This document shows positions 2,785-21,406 of a stretch of DNA of 64,000 nucleotides, piece after piece. The DNA comes from an uncultured Saprospiraceae bacterium (GTDB lineage Bacteria > Bacteroidota > Bacteroidia > Chitinophagales > Saprospiraceae): NCBI GenBank assembly GCA_938045585.1, contig CALIAU010000011.1:124001-188000 (forward strand), given 5' to 3'. The notes below the pieces were generated by a model. The model was not told the DNA's origin. It saw only the letters and a list, made by a program, of their open reading frames with translations, and searched no databases. The position numbers and the translations under genes were made by a program. Within the stretch, counting starts at the first letter, position 1, and each line of letters starts with the position of its first letter.

Positions 2785-2797
2785 GGCTTGAATATAG

Positions 2798-2825
2798 AAA
2801 AGCCCTGAGGTATATCAGAGCTTTT
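2798..2825 (-). terminator. Intrinsic terminator ending the five-gene envelope operon
   Basis: Stem of 10 pairs with one C-A mismatch (AAAAGC-C-CTGA against TCAG-A-GCTTTT), 6-nt loop. On the minus strand the stem ends in a short T run. It lies 22 bp after the FISUMP lipoprotein stop and before the YfcC start, and separates the two transcription units. Confidence 0.6.
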
Positions 2826-2847
2826 CGTATTATATTTGATTATAAGT

Positions 2848-5001
2848 TTAAGATTCTTTTACACAGCGACAGGGAGAACTAATTACTTGTTTAACTGCAG
2901 GAGTAAAATCACTCAATAAAATATTTTCAAAGAGTTCAAATACAAGATAACTGGTTTCATCTAATGTTTCTGTGATGGTTGCTAGAGTCCCAAGATTATA
3001 TGTTCCATCAGTAAATATTTGTCTGTATGTAGAGTTACCCGTTTTTAAACTGTAGCCATCAGCATCCATTGTAAAGTCTGCATTTGGGAGCTGTTCAATT
3101 GCCCATCCTAAACCTATCAATTCTCCGAGTCCATTTGGATCATTCGGATTAGATACTGCTGCAATTAGATTTTCAAAGTCATTTTGCGTAGGTACCCTAT
3201 ATCCATTTGGACAAATATTACCTAAAGCAAGTTCTTCATAGCTATAGTGCCGACCATAGATAGATTGTACACCTAAATTTCCATCTGGTCCATCATAATC
3301 TAGATTTTCTACCATCCAACGTGTGTTTCCAATTAAACGTGTACAGTATTCTTTATCATTGGCATCCTTAATAAGCTCAGTGCATATGCGTGGAGCATCT
3401 TCAGGTTCAATCGATGCCTCCAAAACACATTCATCAGCTACTAAGCTGATAACAATAACCTGGAGTTGAGTGAGTTTGTTTTTCAACTCGATTTCGTGAT
3501 CTGAATTAAATGCAAATTGAGCATCTGCAGGTACGTCCACAAGTCCACCATTGAGAGAGCGCAAAATAAAATGGTCTGCTGTATTACCAGAAGGGTTGTT
3601 TACCCGTAATAATATTTTTTGGTTAGATAATTGACTGTCTTCAACTAGACCAAGTCGTTGAATAACTAGTGTTTGGTCGCTACATGGTGTAGCAATAGGG
3701 ATTACCTTCTTGAAAATGTTAAATGAAAGTTTATATCCATGACCTAATTTTATAAAATCACTTTTCTGTACCCCTTTAATTTGTGTATTGAATAGATTGC
3801 CTAATCGAATTCCTGCAAAATTCGGCGGGAAAATAGAACCCGAGTACATAGATAGATTGAGGCCTGTGTCAAATCGTAGTACAAGGTTTCTATTTATATC
3901 GTCAGTTGCATCAGCAATAGTTGCAGAAAAAACAGGAATGACTTCTGGGGCAACTGCTACACCGAGTGTACCCAATACAGGGAAGGCTATTATAAATTCC
4001 ATACCTACTCCTAAGGATGCACTCAAATTTATATTGAAGTCACTGCGTTTTAAAGTGTCTGAAATTTCCCATGTCACCTCCTTTTGTAATGCCTCTTTGG
4101 AGAAATTATCTCCATCTCCTTCCCAAGTGTAGACAGTGGGTTCGGTTACTCTCCGCACTAATTTAAAAACCTTACCTAATTCAAATTCCGCTTTAATTGC
4201 GCCAAAAAATCGCAAACCAATACCAAGAGCTAATCCTGGAATTGGAGTAGGTGATATAAGTCGTATAAATGGTACTGCATCAGCATCAGTAATTTTTGGT
4301 GGAAAATTAAAACTTTGTGATACGCCTACCTTCAATGCCTTCATTTCTACAGTAAGAGTTGAATTATCTTCATTACGCGTGATCCTTGGTTCACTCATAG
4401 TGTTTTCATCCCATATGTGGGTTGTTTTGATACAGGCTTCATACCCAGCAGTTAGATTAAAACTAATACCAATGTTTTGCATTGCAGCAGTGGGCGTAGG
4501 AACTGTAAAAGGAAGTATTTCTGATCTGGTAATACTTAAAAATTGCATTTCGTCTAGAGAGCTGATCCCGTTAGATTCTAATGGACATGCATCTCTATTT
4601 CTACCAAAAGAAAGTTGGCTAGCATGATAGTACTGAGAAAACGATTCTTTAATAGTTGTCTGTTCAAGATGAAATATTTTTCTTGTGCCTATATCTTCAA
4701 TACTGACAATTTTTCCAAGAATGCCACCTATAAGTTTATGCGATGCCATGGGATAATGAAAAAGTATTTCTCCCACTTTAAGAGTATCAAGTTCAGGAGT
4801 ATTTCTTAATGCAATAAATGTAGAGTCGACAGTAAGAATATCCGCCGTATCCATATGGTTAAGACTCTGCGTAATGGGTTTAAGTACAGTTGGTATAGGA
4901 GCATTTGGGTCGGCTACTGGATCTACAACAAATGCTTCCTTCTCACAATTCCAATGGAGAAAGGCCAAGAGAAATAATATCAAAATGCTATGCGTTTTCA
5001 T
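2848..5001 (-). CDS. Lipoprotein with C-terminal FISUMP domain
   Basis: A 717-aa surface lipoprotein and the last gene of the envelope operon. The N-terminus is a lipoprotein signal with candidate acylated Cys19 (FLHWNC). Residues 20-535 are beta-rich with no family I recognise. Residues ~539-717 carry the FISUMP pattern (Fibrobacter succinogenes major paralogous domain): a D-x-NDKEY-x-T-x-x-IGN-x-x-W-MVENL start, an ICPNGYRVPT segment and a late FELF motif followed by CRC. FISUMP is a C-type-lectin-like fold found on surface proteins; its ligand is usually unknown. The start overlaps the stop of the upstream gene by 4 bp (ATGA), so translation is probably coupled. The role is inferred to be an outer-membrane anchored accessory of the operon. 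Confidence 0.75.
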   Translation of the reverse strand: MKTHSILILFLLAFLHWNCEKEAFVVDPVADPNAPIPTVLKPITQSLNHMDTADILTVDSTFIALRNTPELDTLKVGEILFHYPMASHKLIGGILGKIVSIEDIGTRKIFHLEQTTIKESFSQYYHASQLSFGRNRDACPLESNGISSLDEMQFLSITRSEILPFTVPTPTAAMQNIGISFNLTAGYEACIKTTHIWDENTMSEPRITRNEDNSTLTVEMKALKVGVSQSFNFPPKITDADAVPFIRLISPTPIPGLALGIGLRFFGAIKAEFELGKVFKLVRRVTEPTVYTWEGDGDNFSKEALQKEVTWEISDTLKRSDFNINLSASLGVGMEFIIAFPVLGTLGVAVAPEVIPVFSATIADATDDINRNLVLRFDTGLNLSMYSGSIFPPNFAGIRLGNLFNTQIKGVQKSDFIKLGHGYKLSFNIFKKVIPIATPCSDQTLVIQRLGLVEDSQLSNQKILLRVNNPSGNTADHFILRSLNGGLVDVPADAQFAFNSDHEIELKNKLTQLQVIVISLVADECVLEASIEPEDAPRICTELIKDANDKEYCTRLIGNTRWMVENLDYDGPDGNLGVQSIYGRHYSYEELALGNICPNGYRVPTQNDFENLIAAVSNPNDPNGLGELIGLGWAIEQLPNADFTMDADGYSLKTGNSTYRQIFTDGTYNLGTLATITETLDETSYLVFELFENILLSDFTPAVKQVISSPCRCVKES

Positions 5002-7097
5002 AAGGTATAGTTTAGTATAGTTGACTTTTTAGTTTTCTTTCCATTTTTTCCTACCGCTACGATATAATACTCGTAAGTTCTTTCTTCTTTAATGTTTTTA
5101 TCTGTAATAGAAAGTTTGTTAGGCTTAACAGTTTTAAAGGTTCTGAATGGGCCGTCGTTTACCGATCTATAAATGATATAAGCACGAATATTTTCTGTCG
5201 ATTCATTCCAAGTTAGATCAAGAGCCTTGTTTTCTTTGTCAAAACGTAGATTGAAGTTCTCTATCTCATCTAAATAGAGTTTTCCCATGCCTTTTAATCG
5301 CAGCACATCAGTAGCCATACTACTATTACCCGAGTCGTCTATACTAGAAATAGTATATTCATAGATGACTCCTTCTAGTGCCGTAGTATCTACAAAATTC
5401 ATTGCTTCTTTTCCTAGTTCTTCTAATTGCAGCCATTCGTTTTCACCTAAGATCCTTCGCATAAGCAGCTGCTTTTCAAGATCGATACTATTGCTCCTTT
5501 CCCAGGTCATCTCAATAGCATTTTCCTTGACAAAGTAGTCTTTGAAATAGGCAGGTAGGGGTGGATGTTTGTCTGGTCGTTTAAGTTTGATGGGAGCGGA
5601 CAAAGCAGAATGATTAAAATGTTTATCTAGGGATTGTATTTTGAAATATACATCCTTGTTTAGGTTGTTTAGATCTAAGTGTGTTGTCCACCTAGTGTCT
5701 TTGTAAGCCTTATTTACTAGGTTTGTATATATTCCATCTTTATGATTTGCGATATGTACTTGATAGCCGAGAAGGTCTTTTTCCGGGTTTTCTTCCCATA
5801 TTAGAGTTACTAAGCCAGTTGTATCTAATTCTGCACTCACAAGAATAGGTATGGTAGGTGGAATAGAATCAGGAATAGATATGCCCGTTGGATTTGAGTA
5901 GATATAGTTTTTATTAGAGTCTATTAATTTTAATCGGTAGAAATAATACGGATTACTATCATCTATCTTGTCGACCGCAGAATTTGAATTTGAACTACTT
6001 ACCAGTTCAAAATTCTGATCTGCTTGTAAGGACCGTTCTATTTCTACTATTTCTAAATCTTTTGATTTTTGCTGATTTCTGTATTCCCATTGGATAAGTA
6101 TTTCATTATTTTCCTTCAGGCTCAACCATAGAGTGTCAGGTAGGGTAGGTGCTGTTTTGTCCTCTGCCTGAGCTTCGACTATATTGGAATATTCTGATAT
6201 TTCACCAAAGGGGCTAATGCCTTTAATTTGGTATTTGTACGGTTGGTTATTTTCAACATGATCATGGAAATGAATGTAATCATTGTCCAAATCCAAGAGA
6301 GGGTCTTCAACGTAGAAAAATGGCAGCGATAGAATGTTTCTAAAGCTGCCGGAATCGTTGGCTCTTTCAATCAAGTAGGCCATATAAAAGCCTTCATATA
6401 TTTCTTTCTTCCATTGCAATGAAATCAAGGAATCACTCTCAGATAAGGCATGTATTTCTAATGCTGGGAGAGTATGTACTTTGTCTCCCTCTATTTGAAT
6501 AATATTTGACAGGAGTTGCTTTCCATTGGCTGTGTTAGAAACAATTCTAAAGTAATAATCCTTGGATGCCTCTACCTTACCTATGTCTGCACGTAAACCT
6601 AGTAACATGGAACTTGTAATGTCTAGGTCCGCTTGCATCATTAGGATGCCATGTTGTTGATTTTGTTTATAAACAAGATCAATATGTCCAGTAATGTCTT
6701 TCTCATGTACACTTGGGGTGCTGTCTGGGTGAAGTATTGAAGCAGAAGCTATGAGTGATTTGTTTCTTTTGTCATTTTGGATTGCTGCAAAAAATGTTTC
6801 CCTATTTGCGACTTGTGTAGTTTGGATTTTTTCAAAGTTCTGTGAACTAAAAGACGCTCCTTTATCTATTATTTTTTGTTCTATAATAAAACCGTTCTCT
6901 TTCGCTAAATTAAAATCGGCATAATTATCTATGCGCCAACGTAGTGTTATTTGCTTTCCATCATTTTTTCCCATGAGTAGAATGCCATCCTCATTGTTTG
7001 ATGAGTTTGTTTGTGCCTGTGTAGGCATTGCAGGATACATACTCAAACAAAGGAAAAATAATTGTAATAGCCATTTGCTTTTTATTGTATACTCCAT
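4998..7097 (-). CDS. Secreted fibronectin type III repeat protein
   Basis: A 699-aa exported protein with a signal peptide (hydrophobic 8-27, cleavage after TQA-Q). From about residue 210 onward it is a string of roughly five fibronectin-III-like modules. Each shows an L-x-W start, a central tyrosine-containing strand (YEYTI, YFYRL, YKYQI, YEYYI) and a D-x-x-PP linker between modules. The last module ends at the C-terminus (residue 699), and there is no T9SS sorting tail or lipobox, so it is likely periplasmic or carried by a partner. The ORF begins 2 bp after the stop of the giant gene and overlaps the lipoprotein downstream by 4 bp. Binding or scaffold function is inferred from the module type. 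Confidence 0.75.
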   Translation of the reverse strand: MEYTIKSKWLLQLFFLCLSMYPAMPTQAQTNSSNNEDGILLMGKNDGKQITLRWRIDNYADFNLAKENGFIIEQKIIDKGASFSSQNFEKIQTTQVANRETFFAAIQNDKRNKSLIASASILHPDSTPSVHEKDITGHIDLVYKQNQQHGILMMQADLDITSSMLLGLRADIGKVEASKDYYFRIVSNTANGKQLLSNIIQIEGDKVHTLPALEIHALSESDSLISLQWKKEIYEGFYMAYLIERANDSGSFRNILSLPFFYVEDPLLDLDNDYIHFHDHVENNQPYKYQIKGISPFGEISEYSNIVEAQAEDKTAPTLPDTLWLSLKENNEILIQWEYRNQQKSKDLEIVEIERSLQADQNFELVSSSNSNSAVDKIDDSNPYYFYRLKLIDSNKNYIYSNPTGISIPDSIPPTIPILVSAELDTTGLVTLIWEENPEKDLLGYQVHIANHKDGIYTNLVNKAYKDTRWTTHLDLNNLNKDVYFKIQSLDKHFNHSALSAPIKLKRPDKHPPLPAYFKDYFVKENAIEMTWERSNSIDLEKQLLMRRILGENEWLQLEELGKEAMNFVDTTALEGVIYEYTISSIDDSGNSSMATDVLRLKGMGKLYLDEIENFNLRFDKENKALDLTWNESTENIRAYIIYRSVNDGPFRTFKTVKPNKLSITDKNIKEERTYEYYIVAVGKNGKKTKKSTILNYTL

Positions 7098-7099
7098 AA

Positions 7100-10000
7100 C
7101 TAATAGTTCTTTTTGATTTGTGAAATCGTTTGGTTGAAATGTTTGTAGCTAAACTGAAGTACGGGACCTCCTTTGCTGTTAGACATGTCTGTAGACATAT
7201 TTTCTAAACTTACATATTTGCTTGCAAGCTCGGCTATAAATAGGGGGGCAGACACCTGCGTGTTTTCAATGCTTGGTTGTATGGAAATTACATCTGCTAG
7301 CCAAGTTAGCGTTGCTGTTTTATGATTATCTAAATAGCGTGCTGGGTGATAGTCAATTGTAAGCTTATTTGTATTCTTTTTTAGAAAGGATGAACTGTTG
7401 AAACCAGAAATTTTGTTTTTTAAATTATAGCTATTGTCTGGTATAGGCATCTGTCCTATATTATTTGTGTTTATAGTCAAAAGGCTGTTAATGCCATTTT
7501 GAAAAGGATCGGTATAGTATGGATTGTAGCTATTGTCTACTTCTCCAAGTTGAATTTTTAAACCCTTTTGATTGCTGTTGTTCTTACTTAAACTTAGTTT
7601 ATCTAGTCTGCCATTTTGAGCAAATCTTCCCTTGCCAAAAACAACATCTTTTTTTAAACTGCTTGCTGTTTTCTTATTGTTAGTATAGCTGGCCTTTAAG
7701 TAGTTGAATTTGCTTTCTAAGCTGCTATAATAATCGTTGCCATCTAGAGGATCTGCAATAACAATAATGGGGTGCATAACTTCAGTTCCATTTAGCTCTC
7801 TTTCTTCAAATAACTCAACATTATTTAGACTAATTTTTATGGGCTTTCCACTTGATTGTGTGGTAGGTTTATTACCTGTTTTCCCAAGTGTGTTACCATT
7901 GATGTTTAGTATAAATGGATTGTTATTTTCTTGTTCTGTGATCACTGCTATTTGAATAGCATTTACTTTGGCATTCAGGCTTGCATACCTAGAAGTCTTA
8001 AAAGAGTAACTATAGAATTTTTGGAATTCACCCTCTTCCATATTATCATCTATATGTATACTCGATGTGCCAAGCATGTTTGTACCAAAGAAGGGGACAT
8101 TCCCTTGTATTATAATATTTAGCTTTTTGCGGGATTGAAACTCTATGGCATATTCTTCGGAAGTGGATAGCTCTGGAATTTCATAACTGATAATGCCATT
8201 CGAATAGCTAGCAGGTAGTTGGAAGTATTCACTTTGATCATTGTTTTTTATAATGACCTGATAGTTAAGTGAACGCATGAAGGAAAGATCTGCTATTGCC
8301 TCCTCAAATATTAATTTGCCCTCTCTGCCGCTTACCTCATCAGATAGAAGATACTTTTGATCTCTAAACGGAAATGCTCCTTTTACGTCTTCTGCAGTCA
8401 TGCTAAGTTTTTCTGCTATAGTGAACTGTGCAGTACGTTGCTCACTTATAACTTCTCTATTTCCTTCAAGTCCTGATGCAGTTACTTGGATTGAATATGT
8501 CAATTCAGGTAGGAGAGTAGCGCTAGGATGGAAATGCACAGTAGTCTGATCTGCATTTATTTCCCAGTTTGTTTCTATCTCTCTTCCAGCTGAATTGAGT
8601 AATCGAACGTCAGACAGTTCAACTCGAAAACTTTTAATTTCTTTGTTTCCTTCTGCATCAATTGTTTGATATTCAAAATTTTGATTAATAGGATAGTTAA
8701 GTGTAACTGAAGGAACGATATTGTAATTCACTTCGGAGGAATCCATTGGGCTTAACACACTAATGAGATTGGAACTTTCAAAAGGATTTTCAGTTGCTTG
8801 AATACAGGGTTCACCTATATTGAATTCAAATGCTACATTCTGTTTCCAGGTAGTAACTACCATATCCATTTCAATATCTAAATAGGCTTTCCCTGTTGCC
8901 CAAACTGGTGCTGGTGCTCCTGCTTCTAAGAGGACTAAACTGCGAAGCATAAACAAAGTCATTTCTTCTTGTATCTGAAAATCTACTTCTTTATCATCAC
9001 CCGTAATCAAATTCCAAACGTTTAAACCTGCATTAGTAACAGCTTCACCTGCTTCTGCTGCATTATCTAAAGATTTTTTGAGCCATTCGGGTAATCGTAC
9101 ACCTACATTTCCTTCTACACCCATATATCCTGCTCCCTGTCCATACCATCCATTCATACCAATGTTTTCATGTGCACCACATGACCTGCCAAAAGCCTGC
9201 GTTAAATTGAGATCATAGCCAACAGTAGACGCAAATCGCCCATATACAATAAGTGCATCTACATCTATTTCGGTACTAAACCGCGTTCCGTGCGCAATGC
9301 CAAACCCCGTGGAAGGACCTCCACTAATACCACTGCCTTCTTCGGTAGAAAAGGAACCGCCTCCTCCTTCCGTAGTGGCAGCTTCTATAATGGAGATTAC
9401 TGTAGGAGGTTTTGGAGGTAGATAAGTAGGAACATCTGGCCCAAACCAGAAATAGGTTTCTAGATCGATACTGCCTATGTCCAGATTATATTCTTCAAGG
9501 TTTAGACTTAATCTATTCGGTCTCCATTCTGCTTCTGTAGGACCATAACTTCCTGAACGCATTGTCCATTTCATATTGCCAGGTCCGTTCGAATAATTAT
9601 CCATATAGAAGAATGCATTTCCAGATAAATAGGGTACATGTTCATTGGAATTTCCATACAAAATAGCTGGAGCACCTACAGGGAATCTTACAAAGAGATT
9701 GCCAGAAACCTCTAATGAAAATTTACTTGGGAATTCTGGGAATAGCACCTGAGTCCCTATATCAAACCATACAGGTGAGAGTTCTAAGTTCCCGTTAACT
9801 GGCATAATATAACCAGTGCCTTTTGCCTCCATAGATCGTATACCTCCATTGACTAAATCAATTTCACCTGCGATATACATTTTCCCTAAGAAAGGGTCAG
9901 GTCTAGCAGCTCCCAAAGTCAACCCAAATCCCAAGCCAAAGTTTCCAAATTTAGGTACATACTTTAGTTCTCTATTTCTAGGAATTTGTATAGGTGGACT

Positions 10001-13000
10001 TGGTTCTACTTCTTCTCCAGCCTCATTAACAGCATAGCGCGTATTGGTCAATGGATTAATTGCTATCTTCTCCATGTTATATCTAATACCTCCTTCTAAG
10101 CCATACAAAAAGATGAATTGCTGCCCCATTGGAATTCCTACATTTGTCTCAAATGAAGCATCAGCATAGAAAAAATTAAAATTGTCTTCAGTAAAGTGTG
10201 GTGCATCGACATCTCGTACAGCGGAACCAAATGTGCCATCCATATCTACACGAGCATTGATCATAGGTAATCCAACACTCAAGGAGCCATAAATACCCTC
10301 ATATTTTATTTCTTGTTCCTCTGTTTTGTAGAAACATAATTCGCCTGCTATTCCAACACCACTATAGAGTACATCCATCCCTAAACAATTCAATTGTGCG
10401 GATGCGAGTTTGTATTTTCCTCGTTCTCTTCGTCCAAATACAGAAAAATTTGATTGGATGCCGAGGCTATTATCACCTCCCACCAAACTAAGTCCTACAC
10501 TTAAAGAAACACTAGGTTCTGTAGGAGTACCTCCAAACTTGATATCACTAACATTAATAGGGAAGCCTGCTACCTTAGGTTTCTTGACGACCCCCTCACC
10601 GGGATTTGTTGCCGTTTGATTATTTTGAGAGCCTAATAGTGTAAACTTGGATGCTGCATCAAATCCTGTTTTTGAATTAAACTTGATTTCAAAGGGTATA
10701 TCTGGAAATGTGACATCCGCATCTGGTTTTAAAGCATTTGCTTCTATAAATTCAGAACTCATGGTTAAGTCACCTGCTAATACTAAATCAATGTCAATAT
10801 CATCAAAGAAACTTGATTCTTCAGAGGACTCTTCAGGAGCTTCTTGTGTAGCCTGCGTATATTTCATTTTGATATGCGTAGATGGATTTAGATTAGCCTC
10901 AGCTATTAAAAAAGGCATTGCTACTGCATCTTCACCAACTTTTACATCCAATACATAGGAAATTGTATCTTCTTCAAGTTTACTAATGTCCAAGGCCATG
11001 GTATATTCTAATCGATCCTCGTATTCAAAAAGTGGCAGTCCAACCTGACCTTCAACACCTGCAGATTGAAGAACATTCCGTTGCATACACATGTACATCT
11101 TTTCTAGGCTAAAGGCAAAACCTGAAGTAGAGTCAGCTGCACTAGATGTATCAAAATCTAAAAAATCATTTGTTTCATGGTAGAAAGTAGCAGAAATACC
11201 ACTTTCTTCAATAAGCACATCTTCAACGCCATATGCTAATCTACCTTCCATGCCTAAAAAGTTATTTGGTAAACGGAGCTCAGCAGCTTTTATATAAATA
11301 CCTTTCCAACTGGGTTCGTATTCGTCTGCATGGAACAGTTCATTATTGCTACACTTGGATGGTGGTGTTTTTGACGTAAATGGATTTTCTATTTCAGATA
11401 AATCCATATATGCTTCTTCTACTGTAAAACCCCAACCATCTAATACACTTAGCTGGAAAGGGGAGAACTCTAATCCCAGCATAATATCAAAACTTGAATT
11501 ACCCAGAGCATCATCGATTACAATGTCTTCTAAGTCTGTATTACCAGCAGAAATACCACCACCATCAAGGTCCAGTACAAAATCAAAATCAGCTTTAACA
11601 AATTCCTCTAGATTGCGTTCACCAGTTTCTGGATTTTCTACGACTAATAGTGATTTTGGAATACTCACATTGCCGCGTAATGCCATTCCCTTAATGCCAT
11701 TACAATCAAATTCAAAGAAACATGCATTTTCTCGCGCTTCTTCAGGAGAATTTATGGAGGAATTTCCTGCGAGTTCTACTGAAAGGCCATATAAAGGATG
11801 TTCAGGAGAGATGTCGGCTTCTTCGTTGAGAGTAAAGGTTCTAAAGTTTTCTCCTAAAACTAGCATGGCACGAGATGCTAAGCCTTCAGGATTTAAGCAA
11901 CTGCTTGATCCAAAGGCGATAGTTTTGTTCATTCCCGAAATTGGAATTAACTGTGGCATCGTTAGAAGAAGTGAAATATTCGCATGGGTAGGTGTAAACT
12001 CTAGATTGTTAATACCCATTTTAAACGTATGGTCTCCCAGTCCTAAGTCAACTCCAAAAGGTAAGCTGACTCCGTTGACAAAGTCCGCAGCAGAAAAACC
12101 AACACCTACAATTTCTTGAAATAATTCTAGGTAATCTAAATTTATCTCGCCGGTCTCTGCGTTAAATGTGGAGTCTAATACAAACCAATTATCTCTAAAT
12201 TGAGCTCTTACCGTCCCAGCAATCATTTGTTTTTCACTCGTCAATTTTAAGTCACCAAAATTTACCTTAACCCGCATATTAGATAATCCAGCTATTTCGA
12301 TAATCCCTTTCCCTTTAGCCTTATTACCTGACTCCACCACCATATCAAACTTACCTACCTTTATAGAGTCTCCTACGCTGACACTTACATTTGCTTCTTC
12401 AGCATTTCTAAGGTCAACAAAGCAATTGCATTCATCTACAAGATTTCCATCCTCGTCCATGTCAATATTAGAAAGACTATCTACAGAAACGCTATAGGCA
12501 AAACGATGAATTTCTGATCGACCTCCGTTTTGTAAATCAGGCAGTTCATCCGAACCAAAAGCTTGTACCTGAATTGCATATTCTTTTCCCATTTCTAAGC
12601 CTGGATCACTTCCGTCACCTGGATAAAAGTAGCTGAGTGCATTTATGTTTTCTATATATGCGACTAGGTCAATAGTAGATGAACTATGCATCAACTCTTC
12701 GAGGTCATCCTGGCCAGGTGGTATATCCATAATTTTTAAAGCATATTCAAAAATCTGTGGAGCTGAGGTGAGATGCTCCCAAGTAATAAATATATCTGAG
12801 TTTGGATTTGCAATCACAGTACTTAGATCATCTGGCGTTATAATCCTTGGTGGTTGCGTTATCTCAGCAAAAACATTTCCGCCTATAGAGCAACTTGAAT
12901 CGGATAATTCAAGGGCCAACGCTTCTTCTTGATTTGCAAATACGGCAGTAACGCATAAGCCATATTCTCCTTCAGGTAGAACACCACTAAGGTAGAGCCC

Positions 13001-13462: not shown

Positions 13463-13478
13463 TTGTGTTTGTATAGAA

Positions 13479-15158
13479 TTAAAAATTGATACCATAGCCT
13501 GTAAGAATTCTGTATTCTGAAAAATCATTTGCAATAACAGAGCTTCTTTGTATTCCTAGGATTCTGAAATGCAATGCATTTTTAGAGTTTATTTTAAAAA
13601 GGGATTGAAATTGATATTTTAATACTTGTCCATTACGTTTTTGTTCAATGTCATTATACAGAAGACTGACGTTACTGCTTAGTTGAATACGTTGGTCTAA
13701 CATAAGTTTTTGAACTGCTAACCTCAATCCATACCGTATAGTCTCTCTATCTAAAAAATTGTAGTTTGAATAGAGTAGGGATGGATGTATGCTAAAATGA
13801 TAATGGACAAGTTCTAATCGAAAACCTATATTAGATGAGAAACTATTGTAGCTGTTTTGGAATACAGTAATATTTGAAACATCATTAAATTGCTGTAAAC
13901 CAATAAAACCATTTGCAGCCAATGTAATAGATTCGCTATTGAGGAAACGATAATTCGATGAAAGATTAAGGTTGCGCGAAACAGAAACTTGTCTAAGGGT
14001 GTCATTAAACTCAACAATCTGTCCTTCTGTTGATCGTTGGTAGTTTGAGAAGCTAGCACTGATGCCAAATCTATCATTAGGTGCTGCATTAACAAATAAG
14101 GAACTCACCACGCGTCTTGATTCTCGAACTTTAGTTTTAGATATATTATCTCTAAAAATTCCAAGATTAGAACTTAGCGTAAGTTTTCCTGTTTTACTTC
14201 GCCAGGCAAAATTTCCTGTAATTTCTTCTAAATCATTTTGAAAGAAACTAGAACCAAGTGATCTGAATAAAGGATCAACTCGTTTGTACTTGATGCCAAA
14301 ATTTGATTGCTTTAATGCATATTTAAGTAAAACATGTCCAGCAAAATTCAAACGCGAACTAACAGTTGGATTATAGATGCTCTTTAAGCCGGAATTGTCT
14401 TCTAGCAAGGGGTCGTCACGTCTATCATTTGTAAATCCTGATGCAGCAATGTTTGTCTCAAAGTTAAGTCGATTAAGTGGTCTCAAATGAAGCTTTGCAC
14501 CAAGAATAAAATTTTCATTTGGACTGTGAGTAGATGTGTCGCCTTCCGTTGTTTCAGCAATTTCATCGATAGACTTGAAACCAATAATGTCCAAGTAATT
14601 GCTTTGTTTTCCTATTCCAATTTTGCCTCCAATGGCTTTACGTTCAAACGAGCGTATTGAACTAGCTCCAAATTCATCTAAGAAATTTTGCTTTAATCTA
14701 AAATTTCTGATTTTGCCATACATTGCTCCAAAACGAAACCAGCCTGGATTCCCTTCCACACCTGCGCCAAAAATATTTTTTCTTGCCAAGGTGTATTCCG
14801 AAAATCGCATGGTGGTATGACCGAGGTAAAATCTATACGATTTATACCTCGGCTTAAAACCAATTCTTGATAAGTTGTAATCCAGCTCTTTGCCAGAAGA
14901 ACTCAATAAGAAACGCAAAGGTGCATTAAACTTCCACAGTTTAATATTTTGTCTTCCCACTATTCTCCAACTAAATGGATTAAACCTATCTGTAGTACTG
15001 TCTGTATAATAGAGAGCGCTGCTTAAGTTAATACTCCCATTATATTTGACTAGTTTTTTCTCTGTTTGTGCTTCCATCTGCGTGTGACAAAAGGCACATA
15101 AGCAGATGGAAGCTATAAGAAAACGATAGGTCTTTAAATAGTTTACTCTTGTTTTCAT
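13479..15158 (-). CDS. Outer-membrane beta-barrel protein
   Basis: A 559-aa protein with a signal peptide (hydrophobic 11-24, cleavage after MEA-Q). The mature part is continuous alternating amphipathic strands with many Tyr/Phe/Arg/Asn residues (for example FRFYLGHTTMRFSEY, LSSNYRFLNSESITLAANG) and ends in YGINF. A terminal aromatic Phe is the usual outer-membrane insertion signal. By length it could hold 20 or more strands. Its ATG overlaps the TAA of the repeat-protein gene by one base (TAATG), so the two are translationally coupled. In other Bacteroidetes a giant adhesin is often followed by its own barrel helper (SprB/SprF logic). This barrel does not look like PorP/SprF, so the analogy concerns gene order only. 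Confidence 0.75.
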   Translation of the reverse strand: MKTRVNYLKTYRFLIASICLCAFCHTQMEAQTEKKLVKYNGSINLSSALYYTDSTTDRFNPFSWRIVGRQNIKLWKFNAPLRFLLSSSGKELDYNLSRIGFKPRYKSYRFYLGHTTMRFSEYTLARKNIFGAGVEGNPGWFRFGAMYGKIRNFRLKQNFLDEFGASSIRSFERKAIGGKIGIGKQSNYLDIIGFKSIDEIAETTEGDTSTHSPNENFILGAKLHLRPLNRLNFETNIAASGFTNDRRDDPLLEDNSGLKSIYNPTVSSRLNFAGHVLLKYALKQSNFGIKYKRVDPLFRSLGSSFFQNDLEEITGNFAWRSKTGKLTLSSNLGIFRDNISKTKVRESRRVVSSLFVNAAPNDRFGISASFSNYQRSTEGQIVEFNDTLRQVSVSRNLNLSSNYRFLNSESITLAANGFIGLQQFNDVSNITVFQNSYNSFSSNIGFRLELVHYHFSIHPSLLYSNYNFLDRETIRYGLRLAVQKLMLDQRIQLSSNVSLLYNDIEQKRNGQVLKYQFQSLFKINSKNALHFRILGIQRSSVIANDFSEYRILTGYGINF

Positions 15159-18100
15159 TACTTAGCAATTAAGAGTCGTTTGTTAATTATTCCACTCTTC
15201 ATTTGCAGTTGTAACATGTAATATCCATTGACATAATCAGATAAGTCAATACGCAAATTGGAATCTGTAAATTGAGGGTCTAACTCCAAGAAAATTGTTC
15301 TACCATTTACATCAAACAGGCGAATTGCTTCTATCTTAAGATTAGATCTTAATTGTACTGTTATATGTCCTGATGTTGGATTTGGAAATACTAGAATCTG
15401 ATCAACTAGCTGTGCCTCTTCAGTAGACGTGCTCTCACACGCATCTCCAATACCATTTCCATCTGTATCGGCCTGATCTGGATTCTCAATAAGTGGACAG
15501 TTGTCTTCCAAATCTAAAATGCCATCATTGTCATCATCCTCGTCGCAAAGATCACCCTCACCATCACCATCCGTATCTGTCTGGTCGATATTCATCATTT
15601 CTGTACAGTTGTCATCTTCATCAAGAATACCATCATTGTCATCATCAGGATCACAGAGATCACCTAAGCCATCTCCATCAAAGTCGGCTTGATCCGGGTT
15701 ACTAAGAGTAGGGCAGTTGTCATCCATGTCATTTACACCATCTCCATCATCATCCGCATCACAAGCATCACCTATGCCATCTCCATCTGTATCTAGTTGA
15801 TCTGGGTTAAATACTTCAGAACAATTATCATCCATATCACCAACTCCATCTCCGTCGCCATCGTTTTCACACGCATCCCCAATACCATCTCCATCCGTGT
15901 CAGCTTGATCAGGATTATCCGTAAGTGGGCAATTGTCTTCATCATCATTTACTCCATCTCCATCGTCATCATCATCGCAGGCATCCCCCATGCCATCCCC
16001 ATCTGAATCTATCTGATCTGGATTTACCAAACCAGGGCAGTTGTCCTCACCGTCTGGGACTCCATCTCCGTCTGTGTCGTTTTCACACGCATCCCCAATA
16101 CCATCTCCATCCGTGTCAGCTTGATCAGGATTATCCGTAAGTGGGCAATTGTCTTCATCATCATTCACACCATCTCCATCGTCATCGGCATCACAAACAT
16201 CTCCTTCTCCATCTTGGTCACTATCTAATTGATCCGGATTAGAAGCGAGAGGACAATTATCATTTAAGTCAACAACAGAATCATTATCGTCATCTTCATC
16301 GCAAACATCACCCACACCATCCCCATCATTATCTGCTTGATTCGGATTGGCAAACATTGGGCAATTGTCATCTATATCATCTACACCATCTCCATCATCA
16401 TCAGCATCGCAGGCATCACCAGTTCCATCCATATTAGTGTCAATTTGTGAGGCATTTGCTACATTTGGACAGTTGTCTTCCGCATCTGGAATTCCATCCC
16501 CATCTGTATCATTTTCACAAGCATCTCCTGTACCATCTCCATCCGTGTCTGTTTGGTCTGTATTTGAAGCAAATGGACAATTGTCAGAATTATCTGGAAT
16601 GCCATCATTATCATCATCGTTGTCACAAATGTCTCCTTCGCCATCGTTATCATTATCTGCTTGATTTGTATTTGCAATAGTAGGGCAGTTATCGCTGCTG
16701 TCGGAAATACCATCATTATCGTCATCATCATCACAAACATCACCGATACTATCATTGTCAAGATCGGCTTGAGCTGGATTTGATGTCAAAGGACAATTGT
16801 CAGAACTATCTGGAATCCCATCGTTATCATCATCCGTATCACAAATATCCCCCTGCCCATCATTATCATTATCTTCTTGATCTGGGTTAATTTGATTAGG
16901 GCAGTTATCAGTAGAATCAGAAACACCATCGCCATCATCGTCAGAATCACATACGTCACCCATCCCATCATTATCAAGATCCGCTTGTGTTGGATTTGAT
17001 GTCAAAGGACAGTTGTCACTAGCATCTGGAATCCCATCGTTGTCATCATCTTCATCACACATATCACCTTCTCCATCATTGTCGTTATCTGCTTGGCCAC
17101 CATTTGCAATGCCAGGGCAATTGTCACTGCTATCGGGTATTCCATCACCATCGTCATCACTGTCACATACATCTCCATCTCCGTCGCCATCAATGTCTGA
17201 TTGGTCAGAATTTGCTATAGTAGGGCAGTTATCATTGCTGTCTGGAATGCCATCTCCATCTGTATCATCTTCACAGGCATCACCTATGCCATCTCCATCT
17301 GTATCTGCTTGGTTCGAGTTACTTACAAATGGACAATTATCATTTGTATCTGATACTCCGTCGTTGTCGTCATCTGTATCACAACTGTCACCCATCCCGT
17401 CATTATCATTATCTGATTGAGCTGGATTACTAATAGTAGAGCAGTTGTCCGAACTATCAGTTACTCCATCATTATCATCATCGGAGTCGCATACATCTCC
17501 CATGCCATCATTATCATTGTCTGCTTGATTCGGATTGCTGATCATAGAACAGTTGTCAGATGTATCGGGCACACCATCATTATCGTCATCTGTATCACAC
17601 ACATCACCCATCCCGTCATTGTCGTTGTCTGCTTGACCCGGATTGCTGATCATAGAACAGTTGTCCGAACTATCAGGTACTCCATCATTATCATCATCGG
17701 TGTCGCAAGCATCTCCCATACCATCATTATCATTATCTGCTTGGTTAGAGTTACTTGTCATAGCACAGTTGTCCGATGAATCCGGTACACCATCATTATC
17801 GTCGTCCGTGTCACAGACATCACCCATACCATCATTATCGTTATCAGCTTGATTCGGATTACTTGTTGTGGTACAGTTGTCGGAAGTATCTGGCACTCCA
17901 TCATTATCATCGTCTGTATCACATACATCGCCCATTCCATCATTATCATTATCAGCTTGATTCGGATTACTAATCATCGGACAGTTGTCAGAAGAATCTG
18001 TTACTCCATCGTTATCATCGTCTGTATCACAAACATCTCCCATACCATCATTATCATTATCTTGTTGTCCGGAATTGGATGTAGTCGGACAGTTATCACT

Positions 18101-21100
18101 TGTATCAGGAATACCATCATTGTCGTCGTCTGTATCACACACATCTCCCATACCATCATTATCATTATCAGCTTGATTCGGATTGCTAATCATATCACAG
18201 TTGTCCGATGAATCCGGCACGCCATCATTATCATCGTCTGTGTCGCACACGTCACCCATACCATCATTGTCATTGTCCTGTTGTCCGGAATTGGATGTAG
18301 TAGGGCAGTTATCCGTTATATCTGGAATACCATCATTGTCGTCGTCTGCATCGCAGACATCACCCATACCGTCATTATCATTATCTGCCTGATTCGGATT
18401 GCTAATCATATCACAGTTGTCCGATGAATCCGGCACGCCATCGTTATCATCGTCTGTATCACAAACATCTCCTATACCATCATTATCATTATCCGCCTGA
18501 TTGAGATTTGAAATGAATGGACAGTTATCTGTTGCATCAGCTATGCCATCATTGTCATCATCTGTATCGCAGACATCACCAAAGACATCGCCATCATTAT
18601 TTTCTTGATTCGGATTTGAAATAAATTGGCAGTTGTCAGATGTATCAGGAACCCCATCATTATCATCGTCTGTATCACATACATCTCCCATACCGTCGTT
18701 ATCATTATCAGCCTGATTGAGATTAGAAATGAATGGATAGTTATCTGTTACATCTGCTATGCCATCATTGTCATCATCCGTGTCGCATACATCACCAAAG
18801 ACATCGCCATCATTATTTTCTTGATTCGGATTTGAAACAAATTGGCAGTTATCATTTGTATCGGGTACACCATCATTATCATCGTCAGAATCACATGGAT
18901 TACCCATACCATCATTGTCATTGTCTAACTGATTTGGATTAGAAATATTGGGGCAGTTATCACTTATGTCTGGAATACCATCGTTATCAGAATCATCATC
19001 ACAGACATCTCCGATCCCATCGTTATCACCATCTGCTTGGTTAGGATTAGAAACAAATGGACAATTATCTGTAGCGTCTGATACACCGTCATTATCATCA
19101 TCATTATCACAGGCATCACCCTGACTATCTCCATCATTATTTTCTTGACCCGGGTTAGCAGTAATAGGACAGTTATCAGAGGTGTCTGGCACGCCATCAT
19201 TGTCATCGTCATCATCACAGACATCTCCATTACCATCATTATCATTGTCACTTTGGTTTGGATTAAAATTAAAATGGCAATTATCAGATACATCCGGAAT
19301 ACCATCATTGTCGTCATCAGGGTCACAGACATCACCTATGCCATCTGGTTCAAAATCTTCCTGTCCTGGGTTAGGGTCATTCGGACAGTTATCTACAGAA
19401 TCTGGAATGCCATCCCCATCTGAATCTGGGTTCATGTTTGAGTCTATGATTACAGTAATAAATGATGGAGTAATACATGCTGTAATATCTGTCACCTCGC
19501 ACAGATAGGTTCCGTCCGCCACTGTTGGAAGTCCGGTAAATCCGTTGGAGTTGAAATTGTAAGTACCTACATGTGTTCCAGTTGTACTGAAAATTCCTAT
19601 CGTACCTGTGCCATAGTCAGCAGCATCACCATCTATAAAGGGATTTACAACTCCTGATGGAAAAGTTGTTTTAGGAAGAAAAACCAATCCACTGTTAACT
19701 ATTTGACTTAGATTAATGGAACCCTCAAAATCTTCTAAATGCCCAGATGTTCCATTAAAAAATTCTGGAACACCGTGTGATCCTGTGTAATCAAAAATTG
19801 TCCATTTTCCTGCATTAAAAAAGGTTCCACTGCCATCCATCTCACCATTTATCAGAACTGTAGAACCACAGTTGTCATTTGAAAAAACTGCATCCGATGG
19901 AGTATTGCGTATTGCTTGTAAACCTGAGTCAAATACCGAAATACTATTTCCATTCAGTACATTACCCATGGTTCCAGAGTTATCAATGCCTTGATCACCT
20001 GCATCAATTACTAATAAACTAGCATCCGAGGAATTGAAAAATTCGCCATCGTTATTGAGACCTATTTTTGAAGTCTCATTGATTGCCATTTCGAAGTTGT
20101 TTAAAATAACTCCGCTTGTTTGATTTAAAATTCCATCAGCCGCTGTGTTTCCTAAACTGAGTAGGCCATTATTCGTTATATCGCCACTATTGACTACACC
20201 ATGAAAGCCTGCGCTAAGGATGAAAAAAGCACCATTATTTGTGAATTGTGCTCCAGGTCCTATTGCAATTCCACTGCTGCTGGTATTGTCAATAGTTACA
20301 ATAGCACCACTCTCAACAAATAAATCATCATTTACAATGACTGTTTGAGACGTGTTAGGAAAGTCACTACCCTGTAAGGAAGCGGGTATGGTCATTTTGG
20401 AACTACCATCAGGTGGTCCCATCCCTAAGGGGCCACTGGACCAGTTATTATCTGTATACCATTGGGTATTGTTACCACAGCCAGTCCATACATGTTCGTC
20501 AAATGAAAAAAGCATTGTACCTGGACCAGTTCCCACGATTATACCGCCGCCACCTAGATTGTATATCACACCATTGTTGCTACTGATATCAGAAAGACTG
20601 CTGGAGTATTCTGCAAGTATCCCATCATTCATTATATTTCCAATTACAGGCGTACCAGAAGTAGCATGAATTACACCGCAGGGTTCGTTGTTAAAATTGT
20701 CTCCATCAAAGTCTATAAAGAAATCATCACAAGCTCCTTGCACAATACCATCATTCGTGAATTCTGATCCCGAATTTTTTGAGTGTATGCAATTGCCATC
20801 TACTGAAATAAAATTTATTAATCCTCCTGATGCATTTAAAACCTCCCCATTATTAAGAAATAGACCATGCAAACCAATGTTAGGACCGATGTGTATTTCA
20901 CCTTCGTTAATCAGGTTTCCAATTATGTTAATTGCTTGTTGAGTTCCTTCTACTACAGCTAAAGTACTTCCTCCTCCAACTATTAATGTGCTGTTTCCAT
21001 TAATTGCAATTGGAATACCTACAAGAGGACCAGAGGTTTCTACCTGCATATCGCCTTTTACAATTAATTCCGCAGAATTATTTAAGGTGATAGGATAGGC

Positions 21101-21295
21101 TTGTGCTGTAAATCCCGTGGGTACTACACAGCTGCCTGAGTTTATTATTATATGCTCATCTACAGGTACTGTGCCTGTAGACCAGTTAGACGGATCATCA
21201 TAATCACCTGCGCCACCAAACCACGTGCTTTGACCCCAACTTGGGGAAGAAATGATTAGAAGAGAGAGTAAGAATATCCATTTTAGTTTGTCCAT
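15158..21295 (-). CDS. T9SS-exported giant protein with 37 thrombospondin type 3 calcium repeats
   Basis: A 2045-aa surface or secreted protein and the first gene of the envelope operon. It has a signal peptide (residues 1-22, cleavage after WGQ) and then ~600 residues of short Asn/Gly-rich strands (NNGEV, NDGIV, NSGTM type), probably a beta-helix. Residues ~624-1954 hold 37 tandem thrombospondin type 3 units of ~36 aa with the pattern DxDxDGIPDxxDNCPxxxNPxQxDxDxDGxGDxCD. The tail (~1962-2045) has VFPNPTSGHITVQL, FDVNGR and a final RLLIAK, a type A T9SS sorting domain. The repeats should bind very many Ca2+ ions, with Cys pairs between units, making a long stiff acidic rod. In unit 7 the usual Cys of DNC is Tyr (DNY). 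An adhesion or matrix role is inferred. Confidence 0.9.
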   Translation of the reverse strand: MDKLKWIFLLSLLIISSPSWGQSTWFGGAGDYDDPSNWSTGTVPVDEHIIINSGSCVVPTGFTAQAYPITLNNSAELIVKGDMQVETSGPLVGIPIAINGNSTLIVGGGSTLAVVEGTQQAINIIGNLINEGEIHIGPNIGLHGLFLNNGEVLNASGGLINFISVDGNCIHSKNSGSEFTNDGIVQGACDDFFIDFDGDNFNNEPCGVIHATSGTPVIGNIMNDGILAEYSSSLSDISSNNGVIYNLGGGGIIVGTGPGTMLFSFDEHVWTGCGNNTQWYTDNNWSSGPLGMGPPDGSSKMTIPASLQGSDFPNTSQTVIVNDDLFVESGAIVTIDNTSSSGIAIGPGAQFTNNGAFFILSAGFHGVVNSGDITNNGLLSLGNTAADGILNQTSGVILNNFEMAINETSKIGLNNDGEFFNSSDASLLVIDAGDQGIDNSGTMGNVLNGNSISVFDSGLQAIRNTPSDAVFSNDNCGSTVLINGEMDGSGTFFNAGKWTIFDYTGSHGVPEFFNGTSGHLEDFEGSINLSQIVNSGLVFLPKTTFPSGVVNPFIDGDAADYGTGTIGIFSTTGTHVGTYNFNSNGFTGLPTVADGTYLCEVTDITACITPSFITVIIDSNMNPDSDGDGIPDSVDNCPNDPNPGQEDFEPDGIGDVCDPDDDNDGIPDVSDNCHFNFNPNQSDNDNDGNGDVCDDDDDNDGVPDTSDNCPITANPGQENNDGDSQGDACDNDDDNDGVSDATDNCPFVSNPNQADGDNDGIGDVCDDDSDNDGIPDISDNCPNISNPNQLDNDNDGMGNPCDSDDDNDGVPDTNDNCQFVSNPNQENNDGDVFGDVCDTDDDNDGIADVTDNYPFISNLNQADNDNDGMGDVCDTDDDNDGVPDTSDNCQFISNPNQENNDGDVFGDVCDTDDDNDGIADATDNCPFISNLNQADNDNDGIGDVCDTDDDNDGVPDSSDNCDMISNPNQADNDNDGMGDVCDADDDNDGIPDITDNCPTTSNSGQQDNDNDGMGDVCDTDDDNDGVPDSSDNCDMISNPNQADNDNDGMGDVCDTDDDNDGIPDTSDNCPTTSNSGQQDNDNDGMGDVCDTDDDNDGVTDSSDNCPMISNPNQADNDNDGMGDVCDTDDDNDGVPDTSDNCTTTSNPNQADNDNDGMGDVCDTDDDNDGVPDSSDNCAMTSNSNQADNDNDGMGDACDTDDDNDGVPDSSDNCSMISNPGQADNDNDGMGDVCDTDDDNDGVPDTSDNCSMISNPNQADNDNDGMGDVCDSDDDNDGVTDSSDNCSTISNPAQSDNDNDGMGDSCDTDDDNDGVSDTNDNCPFVSNSNQADTDGDGIGDACEDDTDGDGIPDSNDNCPTIANSDQSDIDGDGDGDVCDSDDDGDGIPDSSDNCPGIANGGQADNDNDGEGDMCDEDDDNDGIPDASDNCPLTSNPTQADLDNDGMGDVCDSDDDGDGVSDSTDNCPNQINPDQEDNDNDGQGDICDTDDDNDGIPDSSDNCPLTSNPAQADLDNDSIGDVCDDDDDNDGISDSSDNCPTIANTNQADNDNDGEGDICDNDDDNDGIPDNSDNCPFASNTDQTDTDGDGTGDACENDTDGDGIPDAEDNCPNVANASQIDTNMDGTGDACDADDDGDGVDDIDDNCPMFANPNQADNDGDGVGDVCDEDDDNDSVVDLNDNCPLASNPDQLDSDQDGEGDVCDADDDGDGVNDDEDNCPLTDNPDQADTDGDGIGDACENDTDGDGVPDGEDNCPGLVNPDQIDSDGDGMGDACDDDDDGDGVNDDEDNCPLTDNPDQADTDGDGIGDACENDGDGDGVGDMDDNCSEVFNPDQLDTDGDGIGDACDADDDGDGVNDMDDNCPTLSNPDQADFDGDGLGDLCDPDDDNDGILDEDDNCTEMMNIDQTDTDGDGEGDLCDEDDDNDGILDLEDNCPLIENPDQADTDGNGIGDACESTSTEEAQLVDQILVFPNPTSGHITVQLRSNLKIEAIRLFDVNGRTIFLELDPQFTDSNLRIDLSDYVNGYYMLQLQMKSGIINKRLLIAK
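15434..19426 (-). repeat. Coding tandem array, 37 units of ~108 bp (thrombospondin type 3)
   Basis: The DNA has a 108-bp period over ~3.99 kb inside the first operon gene. A second period of 216 bp is superimposed, so that two-unit blocks are duplicated. Units 6-7 resemble 8-9 (matching bases at 18577 and 18793). Units 10-11 resemble 12-13 (18065 and 18281). Units 31 and 33 share 89 identical bases (15861-15949 and 16077-16165). This points to expansion by unequal exchange or slippage of two-unit blocks. The arrays are prone to assembly collapse, so copy number should be treated as provisional. Confidence 0.9.
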
Positions 21296-21398: not shown

Positions 21399-21406
21399 CA
21401 AAAATA
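21399..21406 (-). promoter_or_regulatory. Possible -7 element for the envelope operon
   Basis: On the minus strand this reads TATTTTTG, a match to the Bacteroidetes -7 consensus TAnnTTTG, ~104 bp upstream of the operon ATG. No good -33 TTTG is found 19-21 bp further upstream, so the call is weak. A small inverted repeat (GGCAG against CTGCC, ~21304-21330) lies in the presumed leader. Confidence 0.25.

What the first reader, a model, noticed from the sequence alone, without database searches (positions are those of the whole stretch)
2848..21295. Five-gene, 18.4-kb envelope operon joining a T9SS calcium-rod protein, a barrel, a TANFOR-like giant, an FN3 protein and a FISUMP lipoprotein
All five genes are on the minus strand and packed with 1-bp, 16-bp, 2-bp and 4-bp junctions, so they should be translated together. 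Each has an export signal: T9SS tail on the first, outer-membrane barrel second, signal peptides on the giant and FN3 proteins, lipobox on the last. The set spans secretion, outer-membrane passage and surface anchoring, so it looks like one machine, possibly a surface filament or calcium-stabilised coat. I do not know a described system with this gene order.
Basis: partly seen in the sequence, partly recalled or inferred. Interest (0 to 1): 0.75.

Follow-up and report, generated by a model that had tools for sequence, protein, structure and literature searches.

The report
Toxin-linked outer-membrane gene cassette
Three of the five genes form a recurring cassette (a large outer-membrane barrel protein, a giant surface protein and a helper) found in many Bacteroidota and in places lying next to known bacterial toxins, so it may be part of how those toxins reach the cell surface.

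Summary
In detail: five minus-strand genes, junctions -1, +16, +2 and -4 bp, a hairpin after gene 5. The interpretation divides. Genes 2-4 (barrel, giant, FN3 protein) are a recurring cassette: 45 of 56 barrel loci have the giant in the operon (30 of 38 in loci that did not build the profiles). The own genome holds five barrel loci. All 149 barrel-positive genomes of 395 encode the T9SS translocon SprA. Genes 1 (TSP3, T9SS tail) and 5 (FISUMP) are lineage-specific additions. The giant's N-terminus is homologous to TANFOR-type proteins (probability 99.7), a published class of Bacteroidetes polymorphic toxins (PMC7073777). In 40 of 40 related Flavobacteriaceae loci a shaft matching the giant follows the barrel; one, F. 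hydatis DSM 2063, carries what fits the proven TANFOR-BaCT DNase. Best reading: a T9SS-linked surface display or delivery cassette; the barrel (26 predicted strands) is a candidate pore or anchor. This copy shows no known toxin domain, and the giant misses the TANFOR family model itself. The window's barrel and shaft match no Pfam or NCBIfam family over cut-off.

The parts
15158..21295 (-). Gene 1: 2045-aa TSP3-repeat protein with T9SS type-A sorting domain; variable member of the operon
   Evidence: repeat region 33% D+E and no K/R
15416..19462 (-). TSP3 repeat region (108/216/324-bp tandem periods)
   Evidence: Pfam TSP_3, 37 stretches; TRF; coordinates converted from residues about 612-1960
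15167..15391 (-). T9SS type-A C-terminal sorting domain
   Evidence: PF18962 2.1e-12, TIGR04183 9.7e-11, both over cut-off
13479..15158 (-). Gene 2: 559-aa outer-membrane barrel (BAR), core gene
   Evidence: AF2 pLDDT 81, pTM 0.71, 26 strands of 3 or more residues, one of them only 4 long; best match MtrB 6r2q_B Z 19.5, 454 aligned, rmsd 6.1
7100..13462 (-). Gene 3: 2120-aa TANFOR-like giant (GIA), core gene; ATG at 13462
12473..13360 (-). N-terminal region homologous to TANFOR-type proteins (about residues 35-330)
   Evidence: hhalign A6 v A8 prob 99.7, E 1.8e-25; A6 v A7 prob 99.8; control A6 v A2 prob 1.3
8783..12328 (-). Conserved beta-rich shaft (residues 379-1560); a separate gene in Flavobacterium
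   Evidence: A5, 26 rows; AF2 pLDDT 69, pTM 0.41
7103..7975 (-). Non-conserved C-terminal tail (residues 1830-2120), no known domain
   Evidence: conservation drop; no phmmer relative among the ORFs searched
4998..7097 (-). Gene 4: 699-aa FN3 protein, core gene
   Evidence: fn3 1.1e-9; alignment A2 of 11 sequences, window included
2848..5001 (-). Gene 5: 717-aa FISUMP protein, probable lipoprotein (atypical lipobox), lineage-specific
   Evidence: TIGR02145 50.5 bits v 41.65 cut-off; relative at same position in G003 C88
2857..3360 (-). FISUMP domain (residues 548-715)
2797..2826 (-). Hairpin after gene 5, possible terminator
   Evidence: 12-bp stem, z -6.1; not flagged by the consensus scan
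21399..21406 (-). TATTTTTG, Bacteroidota -7-like motif upstream of gene 1; no -33 element at the right distance
   Evidence: the motif definition is recalled, not from a call

Best explanation
The operon is one copy of a recurring T9SS-associated surface display or delivery cassette whose core is BAR (large outer-membrane barrel without a plug domain), a TANFOR-type giant or shaft protein, and an FN3 accessory protein. Proposed working: all products cross the inner membrane by Sec; BAR forms a large pore or anchor in the outer membrane; the TANFOR region docks the giant (or, in split versions, separate TANFOR toxins) on BAR and shaft; the variable C-terminal tail is presented outside. FN3 and lipoproteins (a PKD protein in Flavobacterium, FISUMP here) assist. 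The TSP3 rod leaves separately through SprA by its own type-A tail and serves as a co-displayed adhesive or spacer. Shown by sequence: operon structure, recurring gene trio, TANFOR homology, co-occurrence with SprA, neighbourhood with TANFOR toxins in Flavobacterium. Inferred: the pore role, docking, delivery, and the function of this copy, which has no recognised toxin.
For: GIA directly after BAR in 43 of 56 loci, in the operon in 45 of 56; in the 38 loci that did not build the profiles, 28 and 30 of 38. Reverse direction: 44 of 48 strong shaft places have BAR on the same strand within 20 kb, and 47 of 49 shaft-positive genomes are BAR-positive. In 40 of 40 Flavobacteriaceae loci found with a BAR query the shaft follows BAR; 18 of 40 also have a TANFOR-type protein within 10 kb, 17 upstream and 1 downstream. 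F. hydatis DSM 2063 locus L167 has, in the same row, a TANFOR-type protein with E-x-K exactly 118 residues from its end, as in WP_081912444.1 (E1724 of 1841), the proven BaCT DNase. In G254 a TANFOR-type protein ends in a colicin/pyocin DNase domain (3.8e-41), 0.7 kb upstream of a short BAR. All 13 genomes with a TIGR02542 match are BAR-positive and all 149 BAR genomes SprA-positive, of 395. N-terminal homology E 1.8e-25. The barrel model is closest to MtrB, then AlgE, OprD-type porins and ushers. The own genome also has a split version.
Against: The window giant does not reach TIGR02542, and no protein passes its curated cut-off. No toxin or immunity gene is seen in the operon; the giant's tail is unique among the ORFs searched. 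11 of 56 barrel loci lack GIA in the operon. BAR is found in 149 but the shaft in only 49 of 395 genomes, so BAR has other partners (4000-aa giants; more distant 800-950-aa barrel relatives). Tree agreement of BAR with shaft is weak (r 0.23, P 0.03; within-genome shuffles P 0.13), better for shaft-FN3 (r 0.61); the window's nearest relative is G003 C88 in the shaft and FN3 trees but G003 C104 in the BAR tree. Co-occurrence counts are confounded by kinship, and the Flavobacteriaceae loci are close relatives.
Confidence: 0.6

Rival explanations
1. Adhesive surface appendage: BAR anchors the giant as a large adhesin, much as SprF/PorP-type barrels serve type-B T9SS adhesins; TANFOR homology reflects shared anchoring, and toxins are a derived use.
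For: No toxin domain was recognised in the window giant, nor is one among the families listed for the 13 giants of A3; SprB-repeat and T9SS-tailed proteins occur in the same operons; co-occurrence with SprA.
Against: No PorP/SprF match for the barrel and no type-B tail match for the giants in NCBIfam; in Flavobacterium shaft and TANFOR-type proteins sit in one gene row.
Confidence: 0.25
2. Calcium-stabilised coat or filament of all five products.
For: 37 TSP3 stretches with a T9SS tail are in the same operon; a second TSP3 paralogue follows an FN3 core gene on contig C23 of the own genome.
Against: TSP3 N-terminal region found in only 3 of 60 relatives, own included, while the core recurs without it.
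Confidence: 0.08
3. Nutrient or polymer uptake system (SusC/D-like) with BAR as importer.
For: Large barrel plus a probable lipoprotein; Foldseek lists TonB-dependent transporters among barrel matches.
Against: No plug, SusD or TonB-receptor family and no carbohydrate-enzyme family over cut-off in the five genes.
Confidence: 0.04
4. Unrelated genes in a chance operon.
For: Genes 1 and 5 vary between copies.
Against: The trio recurs across many families.
Confidence: 0.03

Closest known systems
TANFOR polymorphic toxins of Bacteroidetes (Jana, Salomon, Bosis 2020, PMC7073777)
   Same: Homologous N-terminal region; Fn3, PKD, SprB and T9SS-tail proteins as neighbours; T9SS genomes; in F. hydatis the same gene row
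   Different: Window giant is below TIGR02542, carries a long shaft, no toxin or immunity gene seen; the words barrel and porin do not occur in the paper's main text; its supplements were not seen
SprB/SprF and PorP-type type-B systems of T9SS (recalled; PMC9143113 seen only as listing and abstract start)
   Same: Surface giant paired with an outer-membrane barrel
   Different: No PorP/SprF match, no type-B tail; large predicted barrel
MtrB and usher (FimD/PapC) barrels
   Same: Closest folds of the barrel model; their 26 and 24 strands are recalled
   Different: 8-12% identity; no cytochrome, chaperone or pilin family in the five genes
CdiA/CdiB two-partner toxin delivery (recalled)
   Same: Works-like analogy: barrel plus giant with variable tip
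   Different: No POTRA or FhaC family match; T9SS setting

Membership tests
TANFOR polymorphic toxins | TIGR02542 match over curated cut-off | tested here: not met
   no hit for window giant; none of 395 genomes had a match over 67 bits
TANFOR polymorphic toxins | N-terminal homology to TANFOR-type proteins | tested here: met
   hhalign prob 99.7, E 1.8e-25 against five proteins that match TIGR02542 below cut-off; control 1.3
TANFOR polymorphic toxins | C-terminal toxin domain with immunity gene | tested here: not met
   no known domain in the tail; next gene is the recurring FN3 gene; an unknown toxin is not excluded
T9SS type-A cargo (gene 1) | C-terminal sorting domain | tested here: met
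   TIGR04183 41.5 bits v 23
T9SS type-A cargo (gene 1) | SprA translocon in genome | tested here: met
   G000:C10:98921-106204
PorP/SprF barrel with type-B cargo | PorP/SprF family barrel and type-B tail | tested here: not met
   0 NCBIfam families for the barrel at E 0.1; none of that kind for the giants
MtrB/usher-like barrels | same fold | tested here: inconclusive
   predicted model only, Z 19.5 (MtrB) and 15.6 (FimD), rmsd 6.1 and 4.8
FISUMP proteins (gene 5) | TIGR02145 | tested here: met
   50.5 bits v 41.65
Two-partner secretion (CdiB/FhaC) | POTRA or FhaC domains | tested here: not met
   no such Pfam hit in the barrel or its 17 homologues of A1

The most novel reading that the evidence does not exclude
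BAR plus the beta-rich shaft is a dedicated outer-membrane export or delivery apparatus for TANFOR proteins, a secretion route distinct from, but dependent on or co-evolved with, T9SS. It could escape notice in domain-based surveys because barrel and shaft have no family model.
Probability: 0.3. Interest if true: 0.85.

Novelty: new variant of a known kind. Interest (0 to 1): 0.6.

Why it matters
How TANFOR toxins leave the cell was left as a hypothesis (export by T9SS) in PMC7073777. A recurring barrel and shaft encoded beside them gives concrete genes to delete, in a Flavobacterium laboratory strain, to answer it. If right it adds an outer-membrane component to Bacteroidota warfare; if wrong it still defines a widespread unnamed surface cassette.

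Tried and rejected
The C1 'giant' beside the barrel in the own genome (L046:1567-9858) was first aligned as a homologue (A3) but appears to be the SprB-repeat protein; it was dropped from the GIA profile. TssR_M and GH85_C hits to the FN3 protein are below cut-off and were set aside. PDB sequence searches with shaft and barrel profiles found 0. The shaft model (pTM 0.41) matches LptD, SlpA and apolipoprotein B in Foldseek and VDAC at Z 13.6 with rmsd 17: too weak to claim a second barrel. 8gl6_A, a T9SS complex chain presumably SprA, is at Z 14.3, rmsd 11.7; PorP/SprF are not among the 50 rows, which excludes nothing. No overlap of 15 bases or more joins contigs C41 and C23, so a TSP3 gene in that copy is only suggested; a transposase-like end on C41 was recognised by eye. 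A strand-alternation score did not separate barrel from other proteins well. Mirror-tree support is mixed. The genome-contig scan with the giant found nothing.

Rows dropped and caps. Of 57 barrel regions fetched besides the window (17, 40), 2 (L109, L125) gave no BAR in my ORF picking, leaving 56 loci with the window. The 40 were picked by hand from the stronger hits, a few of them because TANFOR hits lay nearby. Operon means same strand with gaps under 200 bp. L053-L056 and L127 were left out of A5. 63 of 104 operon mates were scanned. Searches scored at most 3 and 2 candidates per genome, so their place lists are partial (the window's own copy is not in them). The barrel places compared are a typed subset plus one. 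A7 held 2 of 7 proteins (L095, L098) recruited by the giant profile itself; I repeated the comparison without them as A8, E 1.8e-25 instead of 4.7e-29. One of 13 giants in A3 matches TIGR02542; the output does not say which.
Full report
Observation. The last gene is followed by a 12-bp-stem hairpin (z -6.1) in the 63-bp gap before a YfcC-like transporter gene, and the first gene is preceded by a 250-bp gap to a divergent FdhF/YdeP-type oxidoreductase. A five-gene transcription unit is therefore likely; it was not measured. The simple promoter and terminator scan gave fewer sites than shuffles and did not flag the hairpin.

Genes. Gene 1 has 37 TSP_3 stretches and a type-A T9SS tail; residues 611-1960 are 33% acidic with no lysine or arginine. 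Gene 2 has no family in Pfam or NCBIfam; among the 18 sequences of A1 only stray weak Pfam hits appear. Its AlphaFold2 model (pLDDT 81, pTM 0.71) has 26 strands and nothing before them but the signal-peptide-like helix and a short linker, so no plug domain; closure of the barrel was not inspected. The best fold match is MtrB (Z 19.5, 454 aligned, rmsd 6.1), ahead of AlgE, OprD-type porins and the ushers FimD and PapC (Z 15-17). Gene 3 has no family over cut-off; its alignment shows a conserved N-terminal region, a long shaft and a non-conserved tail. Gene 4 has one fn3 match, gene 5 a FISUMP domain.

The core cassette. A search of 60 relatives (own genome included) with the barrel gave hits in 20, with five places in the own genome; the giant gave hits in 16, and 21 of the 28 contigs with a giant hit also carry a barrel hit (my count). 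I scored all ORFs of 57 fetched barrel regions and the window with profiles of the three core genes. In 56 barrel loci (two regions dropped), 45 have the giant in the same operon, 43 directly after the barrel, and 32 have the FN3 gene, several stretches being cut by contig ends or by 4000-aa giants. The 18 first loci supplied the barrel profile and 12 of them the giant profile; in the 38 others 30 have the giant, 28 directly after the barrel, and 19 the FN3 gene. Searched the other way, 49 of 395 genomes of the phylum have a shaft match, 47 of them barrel-positive (the two others, G148 and G321, have weak matches). Of 48 strong shaft places 44 have a barrel on the same strand within 20 kb; the 4 others have no barrel among the rows compared on the same contig.

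TANFOR. The N-terminal regions of 10 giants align with those of 5 proteins that match TIGR02542 (below its cut-off) with probability 99.7 and E 1.8e-25, against 1.3 for a control with the FN3 protein. The 13 of 395 genomes with a TIGR02542 match at 1e-3, none over the curated cut-off, are all barrel-positive (hypergeometric 2e-6, not corrected for kinship). [quoted passage not shown] The strings 'barrel' and 'porin' do not occur in its main text. Domain-based enrichment could not see a barrel or shaft that has no model: my inference.

Split and fused forms. A Flavobacterium barrel as query brought 40 named loci (38 titled Flavobacterium, one [Flexibacter] sp., one Flavobacteriaceae MAG; three genomes twice). 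In all 40 the next large ORF after the barrel is a shaft, 1540-1592 aa in 38 and fragmented in L178 and L186. 18 have a TANFOR-type protein within the 10-kb flanks (17 upstream, 1 downstream) and 5 more a longer match of the giant profile upstream. A 445-452-aa ORF precedes the barrel in 39 of 40; in L167 it has PKD domains. In F. hydatis DSM 2063 (L167) the order is TANFOR-type protein, 358, 278, 434, 447 aa, barrel, shaft. Its TANFOR-type protein, cut at the locus edge, has E-x-K 118 residues from the end; WP_081912444.1 is 1841 aa with the glutamate at 1724, the same place in a protein of the same strain. I take it to be that toxin, and the 358-aa gene to be its immunity gene, by inference. 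In G254 a TANFOR-type protein ends in a colicin/pyocin DNase domain. The own genome has both forms: fused in the window, and split on C1, where a 2551-aa protein with the giant's N-terminal part, a 241-aa gene, a 1842-aa shaft, FN3, a SprB-repeat protein and a barrel follow each other. No Pfam domain was found in the 2551-aa or 241-aa protein.

T9SS. SprA occurs in 303 of 395 genomes and in all 149 barrel-positive ones, weak barrel matches included. Kinship explains part of this. Of 63 of the 104 operon mates scanned, 11 carry a T9SS type-A tail, 5 TIG, 3 collagen, 3 PKD and 2 SprB domains.

Genes 1 and 5. The TSP3 gene's N-terminal 610 residues match 3 of 60 relatives, own included; the sister species G001 has it beside the same oxidoreductase gene, but its contig ends inside the repeats. 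A TSP3 paralogue follows an FN3 core gene on C23 of the own genome. The FISUMP protein matches 10 of 60, own included, mostly by the domain alone; in G003 C88 a protein similar in the FISUMP domain (E 3e-16) and weakly near the N-terminus (E 3e-4) sits 9 bp after FN3. That locus is the window's neighbour in the shaft and FN3 trees, though not in the barrel tree. These two genes are thus add-ons.

Mechanism and limits. I think the core displays or delivers TANFOR-type proteins at the surface, with the barrel as pore or anchor. The support is genomic and from structure prediction only. Against it: the window giant has no known toxin domain, its tail is unique, the barrel is three times more widespread than the shaft, and barrel-shaft tree agreement is weak. 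The shaft fold is unresolved.

Literature. Searches around this arrangement (listings and abstract starts only, apart from PMC7073777) showed no title or abstract start describing the barrel-shaft-FN3 set; the library holds openly licensed PMC papers only.

Noticed in passing
L128:3214-19533 and L046:1567-11621 (own genome contig C1): A split TANFOR-type cassette in the same genome: 2551-aa protein with the giant's N-terminal part, 241-aa possible immunity gene, 1842-aa shaft, FN3, 2763-aa SprB-repeat protein, barrel.
   Followed up: partly
L043:1-349 and L148:1-382 (contigs C41 and C23): A giant gene ends beside a transposase-like start at a contig edge; an FN3 core gene plus a 2307-aa TSP3 protein begin at another contig edge, possibly the same locus.
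   Followed up: partly
L106, L111, L115, L116, L120, L123, L125: Giants of about 3900-4150 aa near the barrel in other families, similar to the window giant mainly in the N-terminal part of the profile (L123 only to position 306).
   Followed up: no
L048:13564-16550 and L058:13624-16619: An 825-828-aa protein plus a 165-167-aa protein with a T9SS-tail-like motif (script pattern) just upstream of the barrel in two genera, a second recurring add-on.
   Followed up: no
L041:9074-9829, L144:2672-3427, L044:1677-3932: Response-regulator-like genes (by eye) and a histidine kinase (Pfam) lie near several cassettes, which may point to envelope-responsive control.
   Followed up: no
window 60247-62256: Protein resembling the M949_1556 lipoprotein family (below its cut-off) with a choice-of-anchor J domain, preceded by a 925-aa protein without an NCBIfam match.
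   Followed up: no
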